64,000 nt of DNA, taken from Gammaproteobacteria bacterium. Lineage in GTDB: Bacteria > Pseudomonadota > Gammaproteobacteria > SG8-11. This document shows positions 8,549-8,650 of this stretch, in pieces. Made by a program: the position numbers and the translations under genes. Below the pieces are notes generated by a model. The model was not told the origin of the DNA and made no database searches. It saw only the letters and a list, made by a program, of their open reading frames with translations. Location: NCBI GenBank assembly GCA_024641505.1, contig JAHECY010000012.1:1-64000 (forward strand), written 5' to 3'. How positions within the stretch are numbered: the first letter of the stretch is position 1; each line of letters starts with the position of its first letter.

Positions 8549-8650
8549 CTACATGCCGCCGCCCATACCGCCGCCGCCGCCGCCACCGCCACCCATACCA
8601 CCACCGCCCATACCGCCACCACCACCACCGCCCATTCCGCCTCCGCCCAT
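8549..8650 (-). CDS. Met/Gly-only micropeptide (33 aa): MGGGGMGGGGGGGMGGGGMGGGGGGGGGMGGGM
   Basis: ATG preceded by TCGGAGGATACGACT (GGAGG Shine-Dalgarno, good spacing), TAG stop; every codon ATG or GGN. Below the ORF-track length cutoff. Confidence 0.6.
   Translation of the reverse strand: MGGGGMGGGGGGGMGGGGMGGGGGGGGGMGGGM

What the first reader, a model, noticed from the sequence alone, without database searches (positions are those of the whole stretch)
8549..8650. Unannotated micropeptide made only of methionine and glycine
On the minus strand, GGAGG + 7-nt spacer + ATG opens a 33-codon frame in which every codon is ATG or GGN: M-G4-M-G7-M-G4-M-G9-M-G3-M, TAG. An in-frame TAA lies just upstream, so this ATG is the natural start. 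The spacing of Met along a Gly chain is regular enough to suggest a designed thioether array, for example for soft-metal (Cu/Ag) binding, a membrane- or surface-associated filament, or a translation-attenuation element. It lies downstream of, and on the same strand as, a Cys-containing hypothetical gene and an NlpC/P60 lipoprotein gene. Size and composition mean ORF callers would miss it.
Basis: partly seen in the sequence, partly recalled or inferred. Interest (0 to 1): 0.8.

Follow-up and report, generated by a model that had tools for sequence, protein, structure and literature searches.

The report
Free methionine-glycine microprotein family
The 33-residue peptide made only of methionine and glycine is a real gene and one of many in a previously undescribed microprotein family of uncultured Gammaproteobacteria, found only in genomes that also carry their own special versions of an amidating enzyme, an exporter and a transporter/spermidine-synthase fusion, which points to a dedicated system for modifying and exporting it.

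Summary
In detail: 8549-8650 (-) encodes M-G4-M-G7-M-G4-M-G9-M-G3-M with a Shine-Dalgarno site. It is not a chance repeat. The gene is conserved at the same place in the sister genome. About 39 free Met/Gly peptide loci were found in some 25 gammaproteobacterial genomes. Of 28 typical intact peptides, 27 end in Met and 22 in MGGGM; GGG is avoided (3/690 Gly codons versus 515/3501 in flanking genes), as in groEL. Pfam and NCBIfam have no match.

The new result is a set of partner genes. Fourteen loci have one subfamily of MsbA-like ABC exporter next to the peptide, often with a fused MFS/spermidine synthase and groEL. Others have an AsnB-type amidotransferase next to it; its subfamily includes the window's gene at 3738-5723. 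In 387 sampled Gammaproteobacteria that subfamily occurs in 9 genomes, all with free peptides. The exporter occurs in 8 of these 9, and the fused protein in 8 of them plus one other.

Best reading: an exported, polyproline-II-like microprotein whose only carboxylate, the C-terminus, is amidated or cyclised by the AsnB-like enzyme. Translation is near certain; modification, export and role are inferred. Met/Gly tails on multiheme cytochromes and multicopper oxidases suggest a role outside the cytoplasm.

The parts
8549..8650 (-). Met/Gly microprotein gene (33 aa), free peptide, ends MGGGM, stop TAG
   Evidence: orthologue in same-genus genome G001 at same synteny (L055)
8659..8663 (-). Shine-Dalgarno GGAGG
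   Evidence: AGGAG/GGAGG-type site before the start in nearly all family members
8728..8784 (-). conserved AT-rich upstream block (TTGTTTATAAAG..TTTAATTAGAT), probable promoter region
   Evidence: alignment with G001; promoter function inferred
8448..8477 (-). hairpin downstream of the peptide gene, terminator-like but without a T run
   Evidence: RNA fold z-score -3.5
3738..5723 (+). AsnB-like glutamine amidotransferase of the subfamily that accompanies free Met/Gly peptides
   Evidence: tree, class-wide search, Pfam GATase_7 and Asn_synthase, NCBIfam
5936..8383 (+). 815-aa hypothetical protein after AsnB; same pair in G001, related proteins in G004 and G043 only; probably not part of the system
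8810..9229 (-). 139-aa Cys-containing hypothetical, upstream neighbour conserved in the same genus
9285..9800 (-). NlpC/P60 lipoprotein, neighbour conserved in the same genus

Best explanation
The element is a protein-coding gene of a family of free Met/Gly microproteins (about 20-60 aa). Shown: the Met/Gly reading frame is selected, and the family co-occurs with and is often encoded next to three partners: an AsnB-type amidotransferase subfamily, an MsbA-like ABC exporter subfamily and a fused MFS/spermidine synthase. Inferred: the peptide is made in quantity, its C-terminal carboxylate (the only carboxylate in a Met/Gly-only chain, within the conserved MGGGM end) is amidated, cyclised or otherwise joined by the AsnB-like enzyme, and it is moved across the membrane by the ABC exporter. 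Outside the cytoplasm it would form polyproline-II/polyglycine-II-type helices with exposed thioethers and associate with the similar Met/Gly tails and loops of multiheme cytochromes and multicopper oxidases, as scaffold or soft-metal buffer.
For: Frame and expression: 95% Met+Gly over 937 codons in 28 peptides, SD before nearly all, 27/28 end in Met and 22/28 in MGGGM; GGG 3/690 versus 515/3501 in flanking ORFs (P about 1e-38) and 1/355 in groEL. Orthologues: window/G001 at NlpC-139aa-peptide, and the C79/L072 pair. Partners: ABC subfamily within 1 kb of the peptide in 14 of about 39 loci; AsnB-peptide-ABC on one strand in SW_26 (L172; L236) and peptide-AsnB 70 bp apart in L178; AsnB and ABC overlapping in G136 with the peptide 3' of them. 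Reverse searches over 387 genomes: AsnB subfamily in 9, ABC in 8 of those, MFS/SpdSyn in 8 of those plus G172; all 9 have free peptides, and none was found in the others. Window AsnB falls in the 100/100 clade with the peptide-adjacent AsnBs and keeps MCGI, NGEIYN, DTEV, LSGGIDS and GDGSDE motifs. AsnB-like enzymes TsrC, ScdTA and PesC act on peptide C-termini (PMC13060819). Gly/Met tails form PPII helices (PMC12571646).
Against: No transcript, ribosome footprint, mass spectrum or assay. In most genomes AsnB is not beside a peptide gene, and the 2.8-kb proximity in the window is not kept in G001. The peptides have no leader sequence, and the ABC protein lacks a peptidase domain and scores closest to MsbA, so its cargo could be something else. 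Co-occurrence may partly reflect shared ancestry. An AsnB-like enzyme could act on another substrate, such as a glycan.
Confidence: 0.45

Rival explanations
1. Unmodified structural microprotein: the free peptides assemble through polyglycine-II/polyproline-II helices with each other and with the Met/Gly tails of secreted redox proteins, acting as glue or filler; the AsnB and ABC genes serve another product of the same lineages.
For: Giant multiheme cytochromes with 43, 38 and 30 CxxCH motifs end in a PA/PG linker plus Met/Gly tail; decahemes and multicopper oxidases carry Met/Gly loops. Variants join Met/Gly to an AP-rich tail. Gly-rich PPII helices form bundles.
Against: Does not explain the tight co-occurrence with the AsnB, ABC and MFS/SpdSyn subfamilies. 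No signal peptide on the free peptides.
Confidence: 0.22
2. Soft-metal ligand: the thioethers bind Cu(I) or Ag(I), as a buffer or chaperone for copper.
For: Met in a flexible chain; Met/Gly segments on multicopper oxidases, one of them 4.3 kb from a free peptide (L178) and one between the ABC and MFS/SpdSyn genes in G172 where a free peptide lies elsewhere.
Against: No conserved MxxM or MxxxM register; no copper ATPase or sensor seen as a recurrent neighbour; Met/Gly tails are as common on cytochromes.
Confidence: 0.17
3. Trans-acting mimic of the GroEL Gly/Met tail that works with the chaperonin.
For: GroEL tails are Gly/Met-rich; one peptide locus lies beside groEL in G000, G001, G002, G003, G004 and near it in HyVt-444 and bin10089; HSP20 and DegP/Q genes near others.
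Against: Met spacing differs (GroEL GGM; here mostly G3-G4); many loci, the window's included, are not near groEL; AsnB and exporter unexplained.
Confidence: 0.09
4. Untranslated GGN-rich repeat or a regulatory leader.
For: Low complexity; G-rich.
Against: SD, single start, whole-codon length changes, shared C-terminus and groEL-like Gly codon choice in many genomes; followed by its own hairpin.
Confidence: 0.02

Closest known systems
GroEL/Hsp60 C-terminal Gly/Met tails (GGM repeats)
   Same: Gly and Met only, ends in Met, PPII-helix propensity (PMC12571646, PMC11978752)
   Different: Part of a chaperonin, Met every third residue; here free genes with G3-G4 spacing, start, SD and stop of their own, in several copies per genome
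RiPP pathways with AsnB-like enzymes acting on the C-terminus (TsrC, ScdTA, PesC) and lasso peptides
   Same: Small peptide gene, AsnB-like enzyme and ABC exporter; C-terminal amidation, nitrilation or lactam formation known (PMC13060819)
   Different: No leader, no lasso B protein seen, Met/Gly-only core; the AsnB scores 219 bits on the lasso cyclase model against a cut-off of 525
N-acetylglutaminylglutamine amide pathway (AsnO, TIGR03104)
   Same: AsnB-family amidation of a peptide C-terminus
   Different: 348 bits against a cut-off of 570; no such dipeptide genes seen beside it
Abductin and other Gly/Met-rich elastic or glycine-rich PPII proteins
   Same: Gly-rich chain with spaced Met; PPII bundles (cited in PMC12571646)
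   Different: Animal structural proteins, long; no relation by descent shown
Methionine-rich copper proteins (CueO-type Met inserts, SilE/CopC)
   Same: Thioether-rich flexible segment; Met/Gly segments on multicopper oxidases here
   Different: No sequence relation; no metal data (named from general knowledge)

Membership tests
Chaperonin GroEL | Equatorial, intermediate and apical domains before the tail | tested here: not met
   Free 33-codon ORF with its own start and stop
Chaperonin GroEL tail | GGM triplet spacing | tested here: not met
   G3 and G4 runs dominate, G2 is 16 of 148
Lasso peptide system | Lasso cyclase (McjC type) over its model cut-off | tested here: not met
   NF033535 219 bits, cut-off 525
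RiPP (general) | Precursor peptide gene linked to a peptide-modifying enzyme | tested here: inconclusive
   Gene linkage and co-occurrence with the AsnB subfamily shown; activity unknown
RiPP (general) | Post-translational modification of the peptide | not testable with these tools
   needs mass spectrometry
AsnB-type glutamine amidotransferase (window 3738-5723) | N-terminal Cys glutaminase plus ATP-pyrophosphatase SGGxDS motif | tested here: met
   TIGR01536 442 bits over cut-off 267; motifs visible in alignment to 1ct9 and 7ylz
NAGGN amidotransferase TIGR03104 | Score over curated cut-off | tested here: not met
   348.6 of 570.1 bits
Lipid A exporter MsbA (partner ABC gene) | Score over curated cut-off | tested here: not met
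   392.7 of 602 bits for the L175 copy
Copper-binding Met-rich protein | Binds Cu(I) or Ag(I) | not testable with these tools
   needs a metal titration
Known Pfam or NCBIfam family | Any match of the peptide | tested here: not met
   0 families at E<=1; low-complexity sequence, so weak test

The most novel reading that the evidence does not exclude
A previously unknown class of ribosomal peptide in which a chain of only two amino acids, Gly and Met, is C-terminally modified by its own AsnB-like enzyme and exported by its own ABC transporter to build a polyglycine-type extracellular material that docks Met/Gly-tailed multiheme cytochromes and copper oxidases.
Probability: 0.25. Interest if true: 0.93.

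Novelty: categorically new. Interest (0 to 1): 0.78.

Why it matters
It would be a natural two-letter protein family, invisible to gene callers and homology search, broken by assemblers, yet with groEL-like Gly codon choice and dedicated partner genes. It makes testable what Gly/Met segments do, a question still open for the GroEL tail, and may bear on how giant multiheme cytochromes are held at the cell surface.

Tried and rejected
Word-based protein search with the C79 peptide found nothing at E<=1: low-complexity sequence defeats it. tblastn on the 139-aa neighbour in genome contigs found no relatives. Most single pattern hits in other Gammaproteobacteria were GroEL tails, Ffh, J-domain or other large proteins, not free peptides. 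The 815-aa gene between AsnB and the peptide was considered as a partner and set aside: found in few of the genomes. A role for the NlpC/139-aa genes was set aside: genus-specific neighbours. Rfam: no match in the window. Literature searches found no report of free Met/Gly peptides (open-access library only). AlphaFold was not run: uninformative for Met/Gly-only chains.

Full report
Observation. The minus-strand ORF at 8549-8650 is as described: 33 codons, ATG and GGN only, SD GGAGG, in-frame TAA 24 nt upstream, TAG stop. The spacer is 8 nt rather than 7. The longest such run elsewhere in the window is 5 codons and in 50 random sequences of like dinucleotide content 7.

A family, not a single gene. 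The own genome holds several Met/Gly tracts. Besides the window gene there is a second free peptide at C79 (47 aa, L040), and a third at the groEL locus, where the assembly breaks inside it: contig C204 ends and contig C106 begins in poly-GGN with start, SD and stop on the two sides. The same-genus genome G001 has the window peptide at the same place (PBP, NlpC/P60, 139-aa gene, peptide; L055) with a conserved upstream block, and a partner of the C79 gene (L072). The other genomes of the family (G002-G004) carry more, some with an AP-rich tail. A scan of 264 Gb of genomes for a pattern with the MGGGM-stop end gave 31 loci, about 20 of them free peptides, all of these in uncultured Gammaproteobacteria or unclassified Proteobacteria MAGs (hydrothermal, groundwater, marine and sediment). 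The rest are mostly ends of longer proteins.

Coding evidence. In 28 typical free peptides 95% of 937 residues are Met or Gly, 27 end in Met and 22 in MGGGM; 28 of the 31 starts listed have an SD, and in two of the other three the start was set too far downstream by the script, the true start MGMGQ having its own SD. Gly codons are GGC 52%, GGT 38%, GGA 10%, GGG 0.4%; in flanking ORFs GGG is 14.7%, in groEL 0.3%. Codon choice like that of highly expressed genes, whole-codon length changes and the constant C-terminus are hard to explain without translation. Actual expression was not measured.

Partner genes. Neighbour clustering showed an MsbA-like ABC exporter (Pfam ABC_membrane + ABC_tran) next to the peptide in many loci, and a fused MFS/spermidine synthase (NF037959) on the other side in several, with groEL beyond the exporter in G000, G001, G002, G003, G004, and near by in HyVt-444 and bin10089. 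Counting all loci read, 14 of about 39 have the ABC gene within 1 kb. In SW_26 the order AsnB-peptide-ABC on one strand occurs (L172; L236), in NC_groundwater_932 the AsnB gene starts 70 bp after the peptide (L178), and in G136 AsnB and ABC overlap by 4 bp with the peptide 3' of them (L210).

Reverse tests. Searching 387 Gammaproteobacteria (class sample) with the ABC protein at E<=1e-120 gave 8 genomes; with the window's AsnB at E<=1e-170, 9 genomes; with the fused protein at E<=1e-150, 9 genomes. The AsnB nine are G000, G001, G002, G040, G043, G136, G213, G256, G321; ABC is in all but G256; the fused protein in all but G213, plus G172. Free peptides were found in all nine: seven by the pattern alone, and G040 and G136 by reading the ABC loci, where assembly gaps cut the peptide. 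Every other pattern-positive genome that was read had the motif inside a larger protein. The nine lie in six families; in four of them (f40, f68, f129, f133) other sampled genera lack the set, so presence is patchy and joint. In a sample of 359 genomes of the phylum the AsnB subfamily was seen only in G000.

The window's AsnB. In a tree of 31 AsnB-type proteins from 12 genomes the window gene groups with one copy from each of nine further loci at 100/100 support on a long branch (1.37), including those beside peptides. It keeps the glutaminase and synthetase motifs and belongs to TIGR01536, but falls under the cut-offs of the exosortase-associated, NAGGN and lasso cyclase models. The 2.8 kb between it and the peptide in the window is not kept in G001, so that proximity alone carries no weight.

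Mechanism. A Met/Gly-only chain has one carboxylate, the C-terminus. AsnB-like enzymes adenylate carboxylates; TsrC, ScdTA and PesC do so on peptide C-termini (PMC13060819). The constant MGGGM end fits an enzyme that reads the C-terminus. Export follows from the ABC neighbour by analogy. The fused MFS/spermidine synthase could supply a polyamine or aminopropyl group, by analogy with the aminopropyl group of microcin C (general knowledge; papers listed were not read), but nothing here tests that. Gly/Met tails of GroEL adopt PPII helices in solution (PMC12571646), which suggests a conformation. Met/Gly tails after PA/PG linkers on cytochromes with 30-43 hemes, loops in decahemes, and N-terminal segments on one half of a split multicopper oxidase place such segments on redox proteins that work outside the cytoplasm. 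Shown: gene, family, frame, partners. Inferred: modification, export, assembly, metal contact.

Limits. Pattern searches miss peptides with few Met, so absence in AsnB-negative genomes is less secure than presence. The number of loci (about 39) was counted by hand. The literature library holds open papers only, so novelty in the literature is not proven.

Noticed in passing
L039 (G000:C45), L043 (C216), L041 (C131); L062 (G002): Giant multiheme cytochromes (43, 38 and 30 CxxCH in the stretches read) with a C-terminal PA/PG-rich linker followed by a Met/Gly tail.
   Followed up: partly
L042, L066, L067, L136, L187, L189, L191: Multiheme cytochromes (about 8-11 CxxCH in the longer stretches) with Met/Gly loops inside or at the C-terminus, conserved across several families.
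   Followed up: partly
L061 896-3112, L178 5488-7693, L290 1466-3687: Apparently split multicopper oxidase: a half with a TAT-like signal and a half without signal that starts with a Met/Gly segment; in G172 the pair lies between the ABC and MFS/SpdSyn genes.
   Followed up: partly
L056 4419-7183, L058 4268-7081, L213: AP-rich Met/Gly peptides next to a 2OG-Fe(II) oxygenase and another protein that both carry SEC-C-type Cys motifs, and a second ABC exporter; the pair and ABC recur in G043 without a peptide.
   Followed up: no
G000 C106/C204, G001 C85, G040 C168, G136 C61, G389 contigs: Contigs end or carry Ns inside Met/Gly genes, so short-read assemblies under-count them.
   Followed up: partly
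window 8810-9229: 139-aa Cys-containing protein with no Pfam or NCBIfam match, conserved with NlpC/P60 in the same genus.
   Followed up: no
L153, L155, L156, L157, L167: Sub-family of the peptides with constant N-terminus MGMGQ; one member (L156) has GDID repeats in the middle.
   Followed up: no
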